7,143 nt of DNA, from NCBI GenBank assembly GCA_017508505.1, contig JAFVYT010000057.1:1-7143 (forward strand), written 5' to 3'. Positions 1-5,699 of the stretch are shown one piece after another. Both the position numbers and the translations under genes were made by a program. The DNA is from Clostridia bacterium (GTDB lineage: Bacteria > Bacillota_A > Clostridia > Oscillospirales > SIG627). Numbering within the stretch: position 1 is the stretch's first letter; each line of letters begins with the position of its first letter. The notes under the pieces were generated by a model, which searched no databases, was not told the origin of the DNA, and saw only the letters and a program-made list of their open reading frames with translations.

Positions 1-20
1 AACTTTTTTTCAAAAAAGTT
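1..20 (+). repeat. AT-rich hairpin repeat, truncated by window edge
   Basis: The left arm AACTTTTTT (1-9) and right arm AAAAAAGTT (12-20) are perfect reverse complements around a TC dinucleotide (10-11). The bases after it continue TTGG..., matching the right end of the full hairpin at 3532-3557, so the outer part of the left arm probably lies before the window. It begins the first modular repeat array; the GC-rich units follow directly. There is no U-tract after the stem on this strand, so it does not look like a standard intrinsic terminator in this direction. Confidence 0.75.
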
Positions 21-23
21 TGG

Positions 24-130
24 CGGGGTGCGGGGCGGAGCCCTGCGGAAAGCCCCCGCTAGGGTGCGGGGCGGAGCCCTGCGGAAAGCCCTCGTTTGGG
101 GTGCGGGGCGGAGCCCTGCGAAAGACCCCG
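24..130 (+). repeat. GC-rich tandem units (array 1, three copies)
   Basis: The 20-base word GTGCGGGGCGGAGCCCTGCG occurs at 28-47, 64-83 and 101-120, giving periods of 36 and 37 bases. Copies 1 and 2 are identical over 30 bases (26-55 and 62-91), which suggests recent duplication. Each unit contains the small hairpin GCGGGGC / GCCCTGC with a GGA loop and one G-T wobble, followed by an AAAG(C/A)CCC tail. Related units in the same orientation lie at 3559-3611 and in inverted orientation at 3291-3360. The array ends about 20 bases before the polA -35 box. No open reading frame here can be supported. Confidence 0.85.
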
Positions 131-147
131 CGCGGCCACGGCGGGGT

Positions 148-176
148 TTGACAAAAAGGCCCCCGTTTGGTATGAT
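148..176 (+). promoter_or_regulatory. polA promoter
   Basis: A perfect -35 box TTGACA (148-153) is followed after exactly 17 bases by the -10 box TATGAT (171-176), five of six bases matching the sigma-70/sigma-A consensus. Transcription would start near 183, giving a leader of about 43 bases before the polA ATG. The promoter directly follows the GC-rich repeat array. This is a consensus match by eye, without expression data. Confidence 0.8.
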
Positions 177-192
177 AATTTGGTAGAGATGA

Positions 193-217
193 CCCCCGAA
201 GGAAAGGGGGAAGGGAG
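193..217 (+). promoter_or_regulatory. polA leader: small hairpin and ribosome binding site
   Basis: CCCCC (193-197) can pair with GGGGG (206-210) across an 8-base loop in the predicted polA leader. The Shine-Dalgarno-like AAGGGAG (211-217) follows at once and lies 8 bases before the ATG at 226. The stem abuts but does not cover the purine-rich site, so any effect on translation start is conjecture. The site supports ATG 226 as the start. Confidence 0.5.
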
Positions 218-225
218 AAAAGACT

Positions 226-2799
226 ATGAAAACGATTCTGGTGCTGGACGCCTCCAGCCTGTTTCACCGTGCCTTTTACGGCATCCGTCCCCTCACCACC
301 CGCACGGGTTTGCCGACCAATGCGGTCTTCGGGTATATCAACATCGTCAAAAAGCATCTGGATCGGGTCAAGCCCGACTATGCGGTTGCCGCCTTCGACC
401 TTTCCGCACCCACCTTTCGTCATCGGATGGACCCGGAGTATAAGGCCACCCGAAAACCGATGCCCGAGGAGCTGCGAGCCCAGCTTCCGTATTTGCGTCG
501 CGCCACCGAGGCCTTGGGAGTTGCCATTGTGGAAAAGGAGGGCTACGAGGCAGACGATATCCTCGGCACCCTCTCCCGCTTGGCGGAGGAGTCGGGCAAT
601 CGGGCGGTTTTGGTCACGGGTGATCGTGACTCCTTTCAGCTGGTCAGCGACGGCGTCACCCTGATCTTGGCAGGCACCAATAAGGACGAGGAGATCACCC
701 CCGCCGTCCTGTTGGAGCGCTTCGGCCTTGCCCCCCACCAGCTCATCGACGTCAAGGCGCTGGCAGGGGACACCAGCGACAACATCCCCGGGGTCCGCGG
801 CATCGGAGAAAAGAGCGCCGTGAAGCTGATTGCGGCGTGCAAAAGCCTGGACGGGGTTTACGAAAATACCGACGCCCTTCCCGTTGGCCCCGCCGCCAAG
901 GAAAAGCTGCAGGCAGGGAAGGAGGACGCCTACCGCAGCCGAGACCTTGCTCGGATCTGCCGCACCGTCCCCGCGCTCTGCGGCATCGAGTGCTACCCCT
1001 ACGATGGCCACCGTCCCGAGATCCTGGCACCGCTTCTGGTGGAATTGGAGTTTTCCCGTATGCTTAAGACCTTCGGACTGGAGGAGAGCGCTCCTGCCCC
1101 CGTGAAAAAGGAAACGGCCCCGGAGGCGAGCGGCCAAGGCTCCATCTTCGATCTCATCCCGTCTGCCGAAACGGCTCCCGTAGAGGACGTGGACGCAGGG
1201 AGCGTAGCGGAGGACCCGCTGTTTCTTCTTCCGAAGGACAACGACTTTTTCGTTCTTTCCAAGGGCAAGCCCTGTCGCCTTGTGGGGGACGTAGAGGGCT
1301 TTTTGCGCTCTGCGCGTCCCGTGCTCCTCGACTATAAGCAGTATCTGCATCAGGTAGGGGACCGCTTTGGCCGGATCCGCGGCATCGAGGCCGCCTTCGA
1401 CCTTTCCCTCGGGGCTTATACTGCCAACTCCCGGGACAGCTCCATGACCCTTTCCCGTCTGGCGCTGACGTATCTGAAGGAAAATACCGTACCCGATCCC
1501 GAGCGCGACCCCGCCGTGGCGCTGGATCTGATGGCAAGGCTCTACCCGGAGGTGCAAAACGCCCTGAGGGAAAGCGGCGCCGAGGCGCTGTTTTACGAGA
1601 TCGAGCTCCCCTTGGCCTACGTCCTTGCGAAAATGGAGCGCACGGGCTTTGCCGTGTCGAGAGAGGGCATCGAGGAATACGGCAAGGGGCTCAGGCAGGC
1701 CGCCGAGGCATTCAAGCAGGAGATCTATGAGCTGGCAGGGGAGGAATTTACCATCGGCTCTCCCAAGCAGCTCGGGCGGATCCTCTTTGAAAAGCTCGGG
1801 CTCCCCGCGGGAAAGAAGACCAAGACGGGGTACGCCACCGATGCGGAGACCCTCTCGGCGCTCCGCTTCCACTCGCCCATCGTGGATCGGGTGCTGGCGT
1901 GGCGCGGGGTAACCAAGCTCGAGAGCACCTACGTGGAGGGAATGCTCTCTCAGATCGATTCCGACGGGCGCATCCGCACCGTCTTCAAGCAGAATCTGAC
2001 GGCCACGGGGCGTCTTTCCTCCGCAGAGCCGAATCTGCAGAACATCCCCGTAAAAACGGAATTGGGTCGGGAGATGCGCCGATTCTTCACCGCCAAGGAA
2101 AAGGGATACCTTTTGGTGGATGCGGACTACTCCCAGATCGAGCTGCGCCTTTTGGCTCATATGTCCGGGGACGAGGTGCTGCGGGATTATTTCCGTCAGG
2201 GACGGGATATCCATACCAAGACCGCATCGGAGATCTTTCACGTGCCTGAGCAGGCCGTGACCCCCGAAATGCGAAAGAGTGCCAAGGCCGTGAACTTCGG
2301 CATCGTCTACGGCATCGGGGAATATTCTCTCAGCCGTGATCTGGGCGTTCCCATCGGGGTGGCAAGGGACTACATCCGTGCGTATTTCGAGCTGTTCCCG
2401 GGCATCCGCGGGTATCTGGACTCCGTGAAGGCCCGTGCCAAGGAGGATGGCTTTGTGACGACCCTCTTCGGCAGACGGCGCTACATTCCCGAGCTTTCCG
2501 CCACGAAAAAGAATCTGGTGGCCTTCGGGGAGAGGGTCGCGCAGAATTCCCCCATCCAAGGCACCGCCGCGGACATCATCAAGCTTGCGATGGTGCGGGT
2601 GGATCGCCGTTTGGAGCGGGAGGGTCTGGAGTCGAAGCTGGTTTTGCAGGTGCACGACGAGCTGATTCTGGAGGCGCCCGAGGCCGAGGCGGAGTATGCC
2701 GCGCGGCTCCTTTCCGAGGAGATGGAGGGGGTTGTGGACTATGCGGTTCCCCTGACCGCAGAGGCGAAGGTCGGCTTTAGCTGGTACGACGCCAAATAA
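226..2799 (+). CDS. polA: DNA polymerase I
   Basis: This 857-residue protein is DNA polymerase I, which fills gaps and removes RNA primers in Okazaki fragment processing and excision repair. The N-terminal 5' nuclease domain (about 1-290) shows D8, the E108/D110/D111 cluster, D133/D135 in TGDRDSF and GDTSDNIPG (181-189), so flap/5' exonuclease activity should be intact. A Pro/Glu/Ala-rich linker (about 287-335) leads to a shortened, degenerate 3'-5' exonuclease-like domain (about 340-450) in which the acidic DxE of Exo I is not visible; proofreading is probably absent, as in the Bacillus enzyme. The polymerase domain (about 455-857) carries motif A DYSQIELR (catalytic D634), motif B with R683, K687, F691 and Y695, and motif C VHDEL (H810, D811, E812). 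The length is close to Bacillus PolA and shorter than E. coli (928). It has its own promoter and appears monocistronic. Confidence 0.98.
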   Translation: MKTILVLDASSLFHRAFYGIRPLTTRTGLPTNAVFGYINIVKKHLDRVKPDYAVAAFDLSAPTFRHRMDPEYKATRKPMPEELRAQLPYLRRATEALGVAIVEKEGYEADDILGTLSRLAEESGNRAVLVTGDRDSFQLVSDGVTLILAGTNKDEEITPAVLLERFGLAPHQLIDVKALAGDTSDNIPGVRGIGEKSAVKLIAACKSLDGVYENTDALPVGPAAKEKLQAGKEDAYRSRDLARICRTVPALCGIECYPYDGHRPEILAPLLVELEFSRMLKTFGLEESAPAPVKKETAPEASGQGSIFDLIPSAETAPVEDVDAGSVAEDPLFLLPKDNDFFVLSKGKPCRLVGDVEGFLRSARPVLLDYKQYLHQVGDRFGRIRGIEAAFDLSLGAYTANSRDSSMTLSRLALTYLKENTVPDPERDPAVALDLMARLYPEVQNALRESGAEALFYEIELPLAYVLAKMERTGFAVSREGIEEYGKGLRQAAEAFKQEIYELAGEEFTIGSPKQLGRILFEKLGLPAGKKTKTGYATDAETLSALRFHSPIVDRVLAWRGVTKLESTYVEGMLSQIDSDGRIRTVFKQNLTATGRLSSAEPNLQNIPVKTELGREMRRFFTAKEKGYLLVDADYSQIELRLLAHMSGDEVLRDYFRQGRDIHTKTASEIFHVPEQAVTPEMRKSAKAVNFGIVYGIGEYSLSRDLGVPIGVARDYIRAYFELFPGIRGYLDSVKARAKEDGFVTTLFGRRRYIPELSATKKNLVAFGERVAQNSPIQGTAADIIKLAMVRVDRRLEREGLESKLVLQVHDELILEAPEAEAEYAARLLSEEMEGVVDYAVPLTAEAKVGFSWYDAK

Positions 2800-2857: not shown

Positions 2858-3247
2858 ATGATTCAGAACAGAAAGCTTGACCATCTCGGAATGGCCGTGG
2901 ACAACGTAGAGGCCGCGAAGGATTTTTACGTATCCGTTTTGGGAGGGACCGTCGTGGGGACCTTCTTCTGTGAGGGCGACCCCAATCCCGTTTACTTTGT
3001 GAAGGTGGGAGAGGTGGTTTACGAAATGTATCAGGAGCCCATTCCCGAGGGTGCACGGGGCAAGATCGATCACGTGGCTTACGTTTCCGACGACATCGAG
3101 CGGGACTATGCCTTCTGTGTGGAAAAGGGCTATACCGTCACCACCGACGGAATCGAGGCACTGCCGACCTTTTGGACGAGCGGCTGTCGCTACTTTAAGA
3201 TCCTGAGCCCCACCGGGGAGCAGGTGGAATTCTCTCAGACCCTGTAA
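2858..3247 (+). CDS. VOC / glyoxalase-fold metalloprotein
   Basis: The 129-residue product is a small cytoplasmic vicinal-oxygen-chelate protein. Two beta-alpha-beta-beta-beta modules are recognisable: the first opens with LDHLGMAV and the second with IDHVAYVS. The four expected metal ligand positions are H9, E56 (VVYEMYQ), H72 and E124 (EQVEFSQ), nearly the same spacing as in E. coli glyoxalase I (H5, E56, H74, E122; 135 residues). A metal-dependent lyase or isomerase acting on a small oxygenated substrate is therefore plausible, but the VOC superfamily also includes methylmalonyl-CoA epimerases, dioxygenases and fosfomycin-resistance enzymes, so the substrate is not assigned. ATG 2858 is preceded by AAAGGAG with a 6-base gap. 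The gene has its own promoter upstream and an intrinsic terminator downstream, so it is probably a single-gene transcript with no functional link to polA. Confidence 0.9.
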   Translation: MIQNRKLDHLGMAVDNVEAAKDFYVSVLGGTVVGTFFCEGDPNPVYFVKVGEVVYEMYQEPIPEGARGKIDHVAYVSDDIERDYAFCVEKGYTVTTDGIEALPTFWTSGCRYFKILSPTGEQVEFSQTL

Positions 3248-3257
3248 GCCGATTTAC

Positions 3258-3285
3258 CCCCCCGTTTTCGGGGGGTCTTTTTTTT
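3258..3285 (+). terminator. intrinsic terminator of the VOC-fold gene
   Basis: CCCCCCG (3258-3264) pairs perfectly with CGGGGGG (3269-3275) around a TTTT loop, and is followed by TC and eight T residues (3278-3285). This is a classic Rho-independent terminator, starting 10 bases after the stop codon of the VOC-fold gene. Confidence 0.92.
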
Positions 3286-3290
3286 GCTTT

Positions 3291-3360
3291 ACGGGGGTTT
3301 TCGTGGGGCTTTGCCCCGCACCCTGACGCGGGGGTTTTATGGGGCGTTGCCCCATACCCC
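3291..3360 (-). repeat. GC-rich tandem units (array 2, two copies, inverted)
   Basis: Two related units share the GGGGGTTTT word at 3293-3301 and 3330-3338, a period of 37 bases. Their internal hairpins are GTGGGGC / GCCCCGC with a TTT loop (3303-3319 region) and TATGGGGC / GCCCCATA with a GTT loop (3338-3356, a perfect 8-bp stem). Read on the minus strand they match the units at 24-130 and 3559-3611, so this array is inverted relative to those. It begins immediately after the terminator of the upstream gene. Confidence 0.8.
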
Positions 3361-3361
3361 A

Positions 3362-3391
3362 CCAAAACCTTTTTCGAGAAAAAGGTTTTGG
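3362..3391 (-). repeat. AT-rich perfect hairpin of array 2
   Basis: Left arm CCAAAACCTTTTTC (3362-3375) and right arm GAAAAAGGTTTTGG (3378-3391) are perfect 14-base reverse complements around GA. Read on the minus strand the loop is TC, as in the other copies, and the GC-rich units then lie downstream of it. Loop sequence and unit order therefore give the same orientation for this module. The right arm also overlaps a second palindrome, TTTTGGA / TCCAAAA (3386-3400), so two folds could compete. Confidence 0.85.
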
Positions 3392-3394
3392 ATT

Positions 3395-3466
3395 CCAAAA
3401 AGCTTTTGAGTGGCTTTTATACTGGTTACAGAGAGAAAGAAGGATGAAAACCATAAAGCTTTTTGG
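3395..3466. repeat. 12-bp inverted repeat with unique 48-base core
   Basis: CCAAAAAGCTTT (3395-3406) is the perfect reverse complement of AAAGCTTTTTGG (3455-3466). The 48 bases between them (3407-3454) are the only stretch of the 3291-3611 interval not explained by repeats. The core holds a -10-like TATACT (3418-3423) without a matching -35, and an ATG at 3444 with AGAAGG directly against it, too close to act as a ribosome binding site. I see no gene in it. Confidence 0.6.
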
Positions 3467-3471
3467 GAGGC

Positions 3472-3503
3472 TTGGAACCCTTTTTCTCGAAAAAGGGTTC
3501 CAA
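3472..3503 (+). repeat. AT-rich perfect hairpin without GC units
   Basis: Left arm TTGGAACCCTTTTTC (3472-3486) and right arm GAAAAAGGGTTCCAA (3489-3503) are perfect 15-base reverse complements around TC. Loop and inner arm match the hairpins at 1-20, 3362-3391 and 3532-3557, but no GC-rich unit follows directly; the next hairpin starts 28 bases later. Between them, AAACT (3512-3516) and AGTTT (3521-3525) form a further small stem followed by more T residues. Confidence 0.85.
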
Positions 3504-3531
3504 AAAAGAATAAACTATAAAGTTTTTTGAT

Positions 3532-3557
3532 CCAAACTTTTTTTCAAAAAAGTTTGG
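3532..3557 (+). repeat. AT-rich perfect hairpin of array 3
   Basis: CCAAACTTTTTT (3532-3543) and AAAAAAGTTTGG (3546-3557) are perfect 12-base reverse complements around TC (3544-3545). The inner part is identical to the truncated hairpin at 1-20, and GC-rich units follow in the same order. Confidence 0.88.
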
Positions 3558-3558
3558 T

Positions 3559-3611
3559 GGGGAGTGGGGCAAAGCCCCACAAAGCCCCCGTAAGGCCCCA
3601 TAAAGCCCCCG
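3559..3611 (+). repeat. GC-rich units (array 3, one full and one partial)
   Basis: The full unit contains the perfect 7-bp stem GTGGGGC (3564-3570) / GCCCCAC (3574-3580) with an AAA loop, then AAAGCCCCCG. The second unit keeps only the right half: 3574-3590 and 3595-3611 match at 16 of 17 bases. It looks like a tandem copy that lost its left arm. The metG -35 box lies 27 bases downstream, parallel to the position of array 1 before polA. Confidence 0.78.
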
Positions 3612-3638
3612 TTGGGGACAAAAAAGGCGTTGGAGGAC

Positions 3639-3667
3639 TTGAAAAAGCGCACGGGCTTGTATATAAT
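3639..3667 (+). promoter_or_regulatory. metG-tatD promoter
   Basis: TTGAAA (3639-3644; five of six) and a perfect TATAAT (3662-3667) are separated by 17 bases. Transcription would start near 3674 and leave a leader of about 52 bases. That leader is too short for a T-box or S-box riboswitch and shows only a weak GGGC/GCCC stem (3688-3702). This promoter also shows that a longer open frame beginning at 3612 cannot be the true metG start, since that start lies upstream of the transcript. Confidence 0.82.
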
Positions 3668-3725
3668 AAAAAGGATAAAAGGGAAACGGGCTCCATTCGC
3701 CCCGCTCCGGAAAAGAGGAAACCCC

Positions 3726-5699
3726 ATGGAAAAAGAAAAGTTTTATATCACAACCGCCATCGCCTATACCTCCCGCAAGCCCCACATCGGGAACGTGTAC
3801 GATCCCGTCCTCGCGGACGCCATCGCACGGTTCAAGAGAATGATGGGCTATGACGTGTTTTACCTCACCGGCTCCGACGAGCACGGCCAGAAGATCGAGG
3901 AATTGGCCAAGGAGGCGGGCATCTCCCCCAAGGATTACGTGGACGGCGTCGCCGCCCAGATCAAGGCGGTCTGGGACTGTATGAACATCTCCTACGACCG
4001 ATTCATCCGCACCACCGACGCGGACCACGAGGCCGCCGTGGAGAAGATCTTCCAGCGCCTTCTGGAAAAGGGCGACATTTATAAGGGTGAGTACGAGGGC
4101 AAGTATTGCGTGCCCTGCGAGTCCTTCTTCACCGCAAGCCAGCTTGGGGAGGGCGGCGTCTGCCCCGACTGCGGCCGTCCCTGCACCGACGCCAAGGAGG
4201 AGGCCTACTTTTTGAAGCTCTCCAAATACGCGGATCGGCTGATGGCCTATTACGAGGAGAACCCCGAGTTCTTCGCACCGCTCTCCCGTAAGGCGGAGAT
4301 GGTCAACAACTTCATCAAGCCCGGCCTTGCGGATCTTTGCGTGTCCCGCTCCACCTTCTCTTGGGGCGTAAAGGTCAAGGAGGACCCCCGCCACGTCATT
4401 TACGTGTGGATCGACGCACTCTCCAACTATATTACCGGTGTCGGCTACGACCCCGACGGCTCGAAGGAGAGCTTCGAGCATTATTGGCCTGCGGATCTTC
4501 ACGTGATCGGAAAGGACATCGTCCGTTTCCACACCATTTACTGGCCCATCCTTCTGATGGCGCTGGATCTGCCCCTGCCCAAGCGGGTGCTGGGTCATCC
4601 TTGGGTGCTGGTGGGAGAGGACAAAATGAGCAAATCCCGCGGCAACGTGCTGTATGCGGACGATCTGGCGAAGATCTTCGGGGTGGACGCGGTGCGCTAC
4701 TATCTCCTTTCGGAGATCCCCTTCGCCCAGGACGGCTCCATTACCCACGAGGCGGTCATCGCCAAGTTCAACGCCGACCTTGCCAATACCCTCGGCAACC
4801 TCGTCAGCCGCAGCGTTGCCATGGCCGATAAGTATTTCGGAGGCAAGCTCACAAGACCCGCGGCCTTTACCGAGGCGGTGGATCTGGATCTGATCGCCTG
4901 CAGCGAAAAGACCTTCGCGGCGCTCTGCGAGGGGATCGATACCCTCCACGTGGGCGACGCGGTCAACGCGGTGATGGACTTTGCCAAGCGATGCAACAAA
5001 TACATCGACGAGACCATGCCCTGGGCCCTTGCCAAGGACGAAACGAAGAAGGAGAGACTGCAGGACGTACTGTACAACCTTCTGGAGTCCATCCGCCGCA
5101 TCGGCGTGATGCTCTATCCCTTTATGCCCGAGACGGGAGATAAGATCGCCGAGGCCCTGAATTGCAAAACGAGCCACGAGATGACGGAGGTCACCTGCCC
5201 CTTCGGCCTTGCGGACGGGTTCGAGGTCACCCCCTGCGCGCCGCTGTTTGCCCGCATTGACGCGGAGAAGCTCTTAAAGGAGCTGGCCGAGGAGGAAAAG
5301 GCAAAGAAGAAGGCCGAAAAGGCCGCCGCCAAGGAGGCTGCGAAGGCCGCTGCCAAGGCCGAGACCGAGCCCCCCGCTCCCTGTACCTTCGACGATTTCT
5401 GCAAGGTCGAATTGGTCTGTGCCAAGGTGCTGGAGTGTGAGAGAGTCCCCAAGAGCGAAAAGCTTTTGAAATTCCGCCTTGACGTGGGCACCGAGGAGCG
5501 TCAGGTGCTCTCGGGCATCGCCAAGTTCTATGCTCCCGAGGAGCTGGTGGGGAAGAATCTGGTTCTGGTGAAGAATCTGCTCCCCCGCAAGATGATGGGG
5601 CTGGAGTCCCACGGGATGCTCCTTTCCAGCGAATATGAGGGCACCCTGAAGGTGCTCACCCTTGCAGAGGACGTGCCCGCAGGCTCGAGGATCGGCTGA
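3726..5699 (+). CDS. metG: methionyl-tRNA synthetase with C-terminal tRNA-binding domain
   Basis: The 657-residue class I enzyme charges tRNA-Met with methionine using ATP, in the cytoplasm. The Rossmann catalytic domain shows the HIGH-type motif PHIGN (19-23) and KMSKS (300-304). The connective zinc-binding insert has C128xxC131 and C146xxC149, a single-knuckle arrangement. The anticodon-binding helical domain follows (about 345-500; NADLANTLGNLVSR near 349-362 and W433 in MPWALAK). A strongly charged Ala/Lys/Glu linker (about 516-548) connects to a C-terminal EMAPII/Trbp-type OB-fold tRNA-binding domain (about 553-657), which in the family promotes dimerisation and tRNA affinity. The length matches Bacillus MetS (664) and E. 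coli MetG (677). ATG 3726 is chosen because AGAGG (3714-3718) lies 7 bases before it, the promoter lies just upstream, and conserved sequence starts here. The stop overlaps the tatD start. Confidence 0.97.
   Translation: MEKEKFYITTAIAYTSRKPHIGNVYDPVLADAIARFKRMMGYDVFYLTGSDEHGQKIEELAKEAGISPKDYVDGVAAQIKAVWDCMNISYDRFIRTTDADHEAAVEKIFQRLLEKGDIYKGEYEGKYCVPCESFFTASQLGEGGVCPDCGRPCTDAKEEAYFLKLSKYADRLMAYYEENPEFFAPLSRKAEMVNNFIKPGLADLCVSRSTFSWGVKVKEDPRHVIYVWIDALSNYITGVGYDPDGSKESFEHYWPADLHVIGKDIVRFHTIYWPILLMALDLPLPKRVLGHPWVLVGEDKMSKSRGNVLYADDLAKIFGVDAVRYYLLSEIPFAQDGSITHEAVIAKFNADLANTLGNLVSRSVAMADKYFGGKLTRPAAFTEAVDLDLIACSEKTFAALCEGIDTLHVGDAVNAVMDFAKRCNKYIDETMPWALAKDETKKERLQDVLYNLLESIRRIGVMLYPFMPETGDKIAEALNCKTSHEMTEVTCPFGLADGFEVTPCAPLFARIDAEKLLKELAEEEKAKKKAEKAAAKEAAKAAAKAETEPPAPCTFDDFCKVELVCAKVLECERVPKSEKLLKFRLDVGTEERQVLSGIAKFYAPEELVGKNLVLVKNLLPRKMMGLESHGMLLSSEYEGTLKVLTLAEDVPAGSRIG

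What the first reader, a model, noticed from the sequence alone, without database searches (positions are those of the whole stretch)
3291..3611. Modular intergenic repeat: TC-loop AT hairpin plus GC-rich ~37-bp hairpin units
The same two-part module occurs three times: at 1-130 (hairpin plus three units), at 3532-3611 (hairpin plus about 1.5 units) and inverted at 3291-3391 (hairpin plus two units). The hairpin always sits on the same side of the units. The variable unit number and constant order resemble REP/BIME-type elements, but the long A/T hairpin joined to GC units does not match any named family I recognise. A role in RNA ends, chromosome organisation or spread by a trans-acting transposase is inference.
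Basis: partly seen in the sequence, partly recalled or inferred. Interest (0 to 1): 0.75.

Follow-up and report, generated by a model that had tools for sequence, protein, structure and literature searches.

The report
REPIN-like hairpin-array repeats in gut Clostridia
Scattered between genes in some Clostridia is a short non-coding DNA element, built from a fixed set of hairpins and often arranged as a mirror-image pair; it looks like a small mobile repeat of the REPIN kind, but without the usual helper transposase.

Summary
Each module has a conserved 5' leader (AAAG[T/C]TTTTTGG), the TC-loop A/T hairpin, then zero to several GC hairpin units. Modules often stand head to head around a ~50-nt spacer: in the window 3291-3503 (leaders 3406(-) and 3455(+), 48 nt apart), followed by a third module at 3519-3611; another lies at 1-134.
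A covariance model built only from another genus finds three window copies (E 2e-12, 3e-8, 1e-7) and occurs in 18 of 391 class genomes. One genome lists 56 dispersed DNA matches to one copy (capped list). In 12 of its stretches, picked for hit clusters, 40 of 55 modules form doublets, 18 of 20 with leaders 50-53 nt apart. Stems vary by compensatory changes. At the smpB-ssrA spacer three congeners carry the element, with one or two GC units, and a fourth does not.
The layout resembles REPINs/BIMEs, but neither alignment shows a GTAG or CGTC tag, and Y1 transposase genes do not co-occur (8 of 26 carriers, 101 of 269 others). Best reading: an unnamed REPIN-like dispersed element maintained and spread as DNA. 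The enzyme is unknown; transposition is inferred.

The parts
1..20 (+). A/T hairpin of module copy 1; its leader would lie beyond the window start
   Evidence: Perfect 9-bp arms with TC loop; model R1 matches 1-50, E 1.3e-7, cut at its 5' end
26..134 (+). three GC hairpin units of module copy 1 (26-61, 62-98, 99-134)
   Evidence: period 36-37
148..176 (+). sigma-70-like promoter before polA, starting 14 nt after the last GC unit (context)
   Evidence: 11 of 12 consensus matches; shuffles give 0.0 sites on average
3258..3284 (+). intrinsic terminator after the glyoxalase-like gene (context)
   Evidence: 7 GC pairs followed by a T run
3292..3361 (-). two GC units of the inverted module (proximal 3361-3329, distal 3323-3292)
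   Evidence: R1 match 3406-3335, E 2.7e-8
3362..3391 (-). A/T hairpin of the inverted module
   Evidence: Perfect 14-bp arms
3392..3406 (-). leader of the inverted module (AAAGCTTTTTGGAAT)
   Evidence: R1 positions 1-11 align here; pairs with the leader at 3455 in the DNA fold
3407..3454 (.). 48-nt spacer between the two facing leaders
   Evidence: spacers are 44-52 nt in the G647 genus
3455..3503 (+). leader (3455-3470) plus A/T hairpin (3472-3503) without GC units; partner half of the doublet
   Evidence: not found by R1 in this orientation
3519..3557 (+). leader (3519-3531) and A/T hairpin (3532-3557) of a further module
   Evidence: R1 match 3519-3584, full length, E 2.3e-12
3558..3611 (+). 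GC hairpin unit with tandem 10-11-nt reiterations of its 3' arm
3639..3667 (+). sigma-70-like promoter before metG, starting 28 nt after the element (context)
   Evidence: 11 of 12 consensus matches; shuffles give 0.3 sites on average

Best explanation
This is a dispersed, non-coding miniature DNA element of Clostridia, patchily distributed and high-copy in some species. The module is leader + TC-loop A/T hairpin + GC hairpin unit(s). In the genome examined most closely (G647) the usual unit is a head-to-head doublet: [GC units - A/T hairpin - leader] - ~50-nt spacer - [leader - A/T hairpin - GC units], about 240 nt. On one strand it folds into a row of hairpins, with the two leaders pairing around the spacer. 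I propose that single-stranded DNA exposed at replication folds this way and is recognised and copied elsewhere by a trans-acting factor, as proposed for REPINs, and that GC units are gained or lost by tandem slippage. Shown: the architecture, the dispersed copies, the compensatory changes, one filled/empty orthologous site, and unit-number variation at that site. Inferred: transposition as the copying process, ssDNA as substrate, the existence and nature of the enzyme, and no required role for the host genes nearby.
For: Model R1, built only from three species of another genus (24 sequences), finds three window copies with E 2.3e-12, 2.7e-8 and 1.3e-7 and at least one copy in 18 of 391 class genomes at E<=1e-5 (13 candidates scored per genome). 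The leader+hairpin pattern occurs in 26 of 295 order genomes, with 0 hits of the reversed pattern. One 3-kb G647 locus has 97 matches in G647; of the 61 rows listed, 1 is the locus itself, 56 fall on the element segment (query 1422-1567) and 4 on a neighbouring segment. Of the first 43 non-self rows 42 begin within 16 nt of each other, at the outer end of the last GC unit. Doublets: 40 of 55 modules; 18 of 20 pairs with leader 5' ends 50-53 nt apart. Arm pairing: outer four A/T-hairpin positions 639 of 720 Watson-Crick against 230 expected if the arms were independent, wobble 33 against 77 expected. GC units, outer positions 1-4: 86, 97, 84 and 76 of 101 Watson-Crick against 48, 41, 28 and 58 expected. 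Six of 15 consensus pairs show double changes. smpB-ssrA: element in G672, G673 and G647, none in G674; one GC unit in G672, two in the others; right junction at the same position. Ten genes beside G647 elements gave no transposase domain.
Against: No mobilising enzyme was found and no target-site duplication was seen. The left flank at smpB-ssrA differs between species (another hairpin module in G673 and G647), so that site does not show one clean insertion, and it is the only orthologous site compared. Most sampled genomes lack the element by these tests (269 of 295 and 373 of 391). G516 (40 elements) shows no doublets, and G658 has an inverted leader nearby in 2 of 26, so the doublet is not universal. 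Wobble depletion is indirect evidence for DNA rather than RNA, and the copies counted are related, not independent. The 12 G647 stretches were chosen because hits cluster there, so the doublet share is biased upward.
Confidence: 0.66

Rival explanations
1. A REP/REPIN family mobilised by a Y1 tyrosine transposase (RAYT or IS200/IS605 type) that is missing from many assemblies or was lost after spreading.
For: Same general layout as REPINs: inverted doublet, conserved spacing, compensatory stem changes, extragenic (PMC3116915, passages). REPs in genomes without a tnpAREP gene are mentioned in PMC6006769 (passages). Y1 genes exist in 109 of 295 order genomes, among them G647, G658 and G516.
Against: Y1 in 8 of 26 carriers against 101 of 269 others (Fisher p 0.53). 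Adding nine R1-positive genomes of the same sample, none with Y1, gives 8 of 35 against 101 of 260 (p 0.09, direction negative); R1 was not run on the rest of that sample. G599 (16 copies) and G660 (22 copies) have none. Ten Y1 loci gave one weak model match, E 0.0046. No GTAG or CGTC tag in the two alignment consensuses.
Confidence: 0.12
2. A functional RNA element (3' UTR stabiliser, terminator or sRNA) that is selected next to many genes; its multiplication is secondary.
For: Stable folds and compensatory changes. In the G658-family set no element lies in a divergent intergenic region: 0 of 36 regions with element against 16 of 67 without (p 0.001). One terminator-like site falls inside the inverted module (3314-3333).
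Against: In the window 3291-3611 lies between a terminator and a promoter, and copy 1 ends just before a promoter. Orientation to genes is mixed: G647 genus 10 antiparallel and 10 parallel tandem cases, 3 convergent and 2 divergent of 33. Terminators are not enriched upstream (11 of 73 against 36 of 166 background windows). Wobble pairs are below chance. No Rfam family reaches its cut-off at the element.
Confidence: 0.12
3. Hairpins multiply locally by replication slippage or template switching without any enzyme; similar copies elsewhere are convergent or arise by gene conversion.
For: 3'-arm reiterations downstream of some hairpins (12 of 75 elements, against 6 of 75 for 5' arms upstream); clean one-unit difference at smpB-ssrA.
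Against: Does not explain tens of dispersed copies with fixed-spacing doublets and a shared ~50-nt spacer in different intergenic regions.
Confidence: 0.08

Closest known systems
REPINs (REP doublets forming hairpins), Pseudomonas and E. coli
   Same: Extragenic inverted doublets with preferred spacings (71 and 110 bp most common in SBW25), compensatory stem changes, high copy number (PMC3116915, passages)
   Different: Leader AAAGTTTTTGG instead of a tagged REP; each half carries an A/T hairpin and often GC hairpins; spacer ~50 nt; no Y1/RAYT association here
GTAG- and CGTC-tagged REPs / BIMEs
   Same: Short palindromes, head-to-head dimers, variable unit number; CGTC repeats also lack a dedicated transposase (PMC3733652, passages)
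   Different: No GTAG or CGTC tag in the consensus; composite of two unlike hairpin types in fixed order; the passages seen name Proteobacteria, Cyanobacteria, Chloroflexi, PVC, Chlorobi, Bacteroidetes, Spirochaetes and Thermotogae, and the text has 0 hits for Clostridi or Firmicutes
BOX elements of Streptococcus pneumoniae
   Same: Composite modules in fixed order with a variable number of a middle unit (boxA-boxB(n)-boxC) (PMC3049150, passages)
   Different: BOX has TIRs and target duplications, not seen here; nothing in the passages describes BOX as an inverted doublet; the sequences were not compared
Gut-1 RNA (RF01706)
   Same: Intergenic hairpin arrays in the same genomes; hits in L064 and L110
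   Different: Different repeat (GATGAAATC-separated hairpins); its matches lie outside the element

Membership tests
REPIN/RAYT | Inverted doublet with conserved spacing | tested here: met
   G647: 18 of 20 pairs with leaders 50-53 nt apart; window 48-nt spacer. Not seen in G516 (0 of 40)
REPIN/RAYT | GTAG-type tag at the hairpin foot | tested here: not met
   Consensus of A1 (22 G516 copies) and A2 (24 G647-genus copies) shows AAAGTTTTTGG before the hairpin and no GTAG
REPIN/RAYT | Y1 transposase gene in the genome, flanked by the repeat | tested here: not met
   No co-occurrence; one weak match among 10 Y1 loci. Assemblies may be incomplete
CGTC REP | CGTC tag at one end | tested here: not met
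   Not in the A1 or A2 consensus
BOX | Modular order with variable middle-unit number | tested here: met
   GC units 1 or 2 at the smpB-ssrA site, up to 4 in G647 copies (L159), 3 in window copy 1; the varying unit is terminal, not in the middle
BOX | Homology to boxA/boxB/boxC | not tested
   No BOX sequence was compared
MITE | Terminal inverted repeats and target-site duplication | tested here: inconclusive
   The inverted leaders are internal, not terminal; no duplication is visible at smpB-ssrA, where left flanks differ
Intrinsic terminator | GC stem directly followed by a T run | tested here: inconclusive
   In 3200-3740 the scan lists four sites (1.7 expected): three nested at the 3256-3276 terminator and one inside the inverted module, 3314-3333, with a mixed tail; in 1-260 one site, 143-163, after the GC units (0.7 expected)
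Rfam families (release 15) | Match at the curated gathering score over the element | tested here: not met
   Window: best is MIR7533 50.9 bits, cut-off 230; 16 loci: only Gut-1 reaches its cut-off, outside the element

The most novel reading that the evidence does not exclude
A REPIN-like lineage across Clostridia, possibly with relatives in other phyla, whose hairpin-array doublets are recognised and copied by an undescribed single-strand-DNA-structure enzyme that is not a Y1 (RAYT/IS200) transposase.
Probability: 0.35. Interest if true: 0.78.

Novelty: new variant of a known kind. Interest (0 to 1): 0.6.

Why it matters
REPINs have been linked to one domesticated transposase family. A doublet element with the same geometry but without that enzyme would either reveal a second way for hairpin repeats to spread or show that the geometry itself is selected. 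The G647 genus gives a natural series (97, 63, 47, 20, 19 and 0 matches to one 3-kb locus; element confirmed in G670 and G671 by R1) in which the missing factor can be sought. Several copies in G658 and G599 lie within ~350 nt of a contig end, so these repeats probably break metagenome assemblies; the window itself starts inside one.

Tried and rejected
Insertion preferentially after terminators: looked likely by eye, rejected by count (11 of 73 against 36 of 166 random intergenic windows). Reiteration of 3' arms as a general rule: only 12 of 75 elements. Directional bias relative to genes: the first count favoured antiparallel downstream genes, but tandem cases alone are 18 to 11 in the G658-family set and 10 to 10 in the G647 genus. 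Rfam MIR7533 (E 4e-8, 50.9 bits, cut-off 230) is most likely an effect of the inverted repeats. DNA similarity searches: no match in phages or plasmids for the window region or the G647 element. Two exact viral contigs patterns gave nothing. A leader+hairpin pattern gave 22 viral stretches; their leader and hairpin core are identical by construction, so I use them as leads only. Literature: nine text searches, of which I saw the listings. One search covered the leader, its complement and the hairpin core as strings: 37 papers, 15 listed, none of those 15 by title about bacterial repeats. Papers cited were seen as passages (PMC3116915, PMC3733652, PMC2267715, PMC6006769, PMC3049150) or as outline and abstract only (PMC4666352, PMC12306157).

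Corrections: one search ended in a script error after printing the gene contexts and was rerun. In one search the wobble column of the per-position tables was double-counted; the sums used here were counted apart, and the GC units were recounted. The leader pattern required six T (or C and five T) and was corrected. One search gave 0 for G670 and G671 by strict pattern; searches show diverged copies there, so only G674 is treated as lacking the element.

Full report
What the window is. The window holds polA, a glyoxalase-like gene, metG, tatD and the start of a GAPDH gene, all on the plus strand. The nearest named MetG relatives in the list of 120 are 'Clostridia bacterium' (81% identity) and a Ruminococcaceae/Oscillospiraceae bacterium (65%). 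The window's own genome is not held. The nearest of 295 held genomes of one order, by MetG, are G599 (82%), G561 and G658 (79%), and G651 and G490 (74%).

Observation. The three modules are present as described and exceed chance. I add a fourth module without GC units at 3455-3503 and a conserved leader directly before the hairpins. The modules at 3291-3406 (minus) and 3455-3503 (plus) face each other with their leaders, 48 nt apart; as single-stranded DNA 3291-3503 folds with the leaders paired (z -10.2). Both intergenic clusters end just before a sigma-70-like promoter (148-176 and 3639-3667, 11 of 12 matches each), and 3291 follows a canonical terminator; what lies before copy 1 is outside the window. 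The modules are therefore probably outside the regular transcripts (inference).

Relatives. In the 22 held genomes of the G658 family, the GC-unit pattern occurs in 4 and the leader+hairpin pattern in 10, with no hit of the reversed pattern. In an order-wide sample the latter occurs in 26 of 295 genomes, again with no reversed hits; the highest counts are 30 (G647), 22 (G660), 21 (G658), 19 (G516) and 16 (G599). Copies within a species mostly share their arm sequences, which differ between species. Among 75 unique leader-bearing hairpins (72 from the G658 family, 3 from the window) the loop, read in leader direction, is TC in 59 and GA in 1.

A second genus with the full architecture. In the genus of G647 the element reads AAAGTTTTTGG, an A/T hairpin, and one or more GC units (up to four in L159), as in the window. 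SmpB of its member G672 is 97% identical to one named 'Clostridia bacterium' and 82-86% to ones named Acutalibacteraceae. I aligned 24 of 26 extracted segments from G647, G672 and G673 (one divergent segment and a second one from the same locus were left out), found double changes in 6 of 15 pairs, and built model R1. R1 finds three window copies at E 2.3e-12, 2.7e-8 and 1.3e-7; it does not find the fourth, which has no GC unit. Among 25 other loci it gives E 7.6e-14 in L010, 6.1e-10 in L007 and 6.8e-6 in L019.

Copy number and unit. Of the 61 G647 rows listed, 1 is the locus itself, 56 fall on the element and 4 on a neighbouring segment (my count of the listing). G671 rows are not listed, but R1 finds the element in the G670 and G671 loci (L228 E 6.7e-13, L233 1e-10, L229 6e-10, L234 1e-6). 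Of the first 43 non-self G647 rows, 42 begin at query 1426-1441, at the outer end of the last GC unit. In 12 G647 stretches (67.9 kb, chosen because hits cluster there) R1 gives 55 matches at E<=1e-7, and 40 of these modules are in head-to-head doublets with leader 5' ends 30-60 nt apart; 18 of the 20 doublets are at 50-53. The spacer is itself alike between copies. Over all loci held at that point, 32 of 182 elements have an inverted leader within 100 nt upstream, against 2 of 158 in a control interval (both halves of a pair are counted). G516 has none of 40 and G658 2 of 26, so the doublet is not universal.

Structure is selected or maintained. At 180 leader-anchored A/T cores the four outer pairs are Watson-Crick in 639 of 720 cases (230 expected if the arms were independent), with 33 wobble pairs (77 expected). 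For 101 GC units the outer four positions are Watson-Crick in 86, 97, 84 and 76 (48, 41, 28 and 58 expected). Copies are related, so these are not independent trials. The shortage of wobble pairs fits DNA-level better than RNA-level maintenance, but does not prove it.

A filled and an empty site. Between smpB and ssrA, G672, G673 and G647 carry the element and the congener G674 does not; G670 and G671 were not examined there. The right junction is at the same position in the three, and G672 has one GC unit where the others have two. The 5' flank differs: in G672 the element supplies the last codons and stop of smpB, while G673 and G647 have another hairpin module there. R1 finds no match in L184 (G674), nor in L185-L187 and L189-L191; it gives a match away from this site in L188 (E 5e-8) and a weak one in L192 just after smpB (E 0.0075). 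Of the genomes with smpB I looked at these 12 loci with R1, and at 18 loci by script, 4 of which the script could not parse.

Gene context. In the set of 75 unique elements, 20 lie between convergent genes, 29 between tandem genes, none between divergent genes, 8 overlap a predicted ORF, and 18 have one side missing at a contig or stretch end. By intergenic region, 0 of 36 with an element are divergent against 16 of 67 without (p 0.001). In the G647 genus 2 of 33 elements are divergent, so the avoidance is partial. Gene calls are my own hexamer-model predictions. Ten G647 genes beside elements are ordinary: SpoIIP, PHP, sortase/Big_2, a putative methyltransferase, RtcB, histidyl- and class-II (D/K/N) tRNA synthetases, SpoIIR, an ABC transporter, one unassigned.

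Is it a RAYT system? PF01797 occurs in 9 of 22 family genomes, 4 of them among the 10 carriers, and in 109 of 295 order genomes: 8 of 26 pattern carriers and 101 of 269 others (p 0.53). Nine R1-positive genomes that are also in the order sample (G119, G143, G166, G208, G266, G283, G335, G371, G388) have none. Fragmented assemblies may hide genes, but the direction is negative. Neither REP tag is in the alignment consensuses. I therefore compare it with REPINs in layout and do not file it as one.

Beyond Clostridia. 22 viral-contig stretches match the leader+hairpin pattern. One of them (L121) has two hairpins between inverted leaders, and its DNA has relatives on six Komagataeibacter/Novacetimonas plasmids (15 places). 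This may be convergence, since the search fixed the leader and core.

Verdict. A real hairpin-array repeat, high-copy in some species and with no name found in the searches made, with REPIN-like doublets and BOX-like variable units. Mobility is likely but inferred, and the enzyme is unknown.

Noticed in passing
L064:2580-2653; L110:92-162: Gut-1 RNA (RF01706) above its curated cut-off: arrays of small hairpins separated by GATGAAATC, a second intergenic hairpin repeat in the same genomes.
   Followed up: partly
L183 (G647), within the smpB 3' end: smpB is interrupted near its end by ~150 nt that end in a CRISPR-repeat-like GTGGATTGAAAC (label from recall).
   Followed up: no
L158, L162, L171, L176, L178, L181, L183: A third hairpin module, AAAATTTGC...GCAAATTTT, stands before or after the element in the G647 genus.
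   Followed up: partly
L033, after the element: Tandem ~20-nt repeats GGGGCGTTAGCTTTCCTTTT beside a G658 copy.
   Followed up: no
L236:1886-3082 (Novacetimonas hansenii plasmid p1): A relative of the L121 palindromic element lies 48 nt after an IS630-family transposase gene.
   Followed up: no
window 10-2655, minus strand: An 881-aa open frame opposite polA; probably an effect of GC-rich codon use.
   Followed up: no
L095, L102, L083, L087, window 3571-3611: The 3' arm of a hairpin is repeated in tandem one to several times downstream of some copies.
   Followed up: partly
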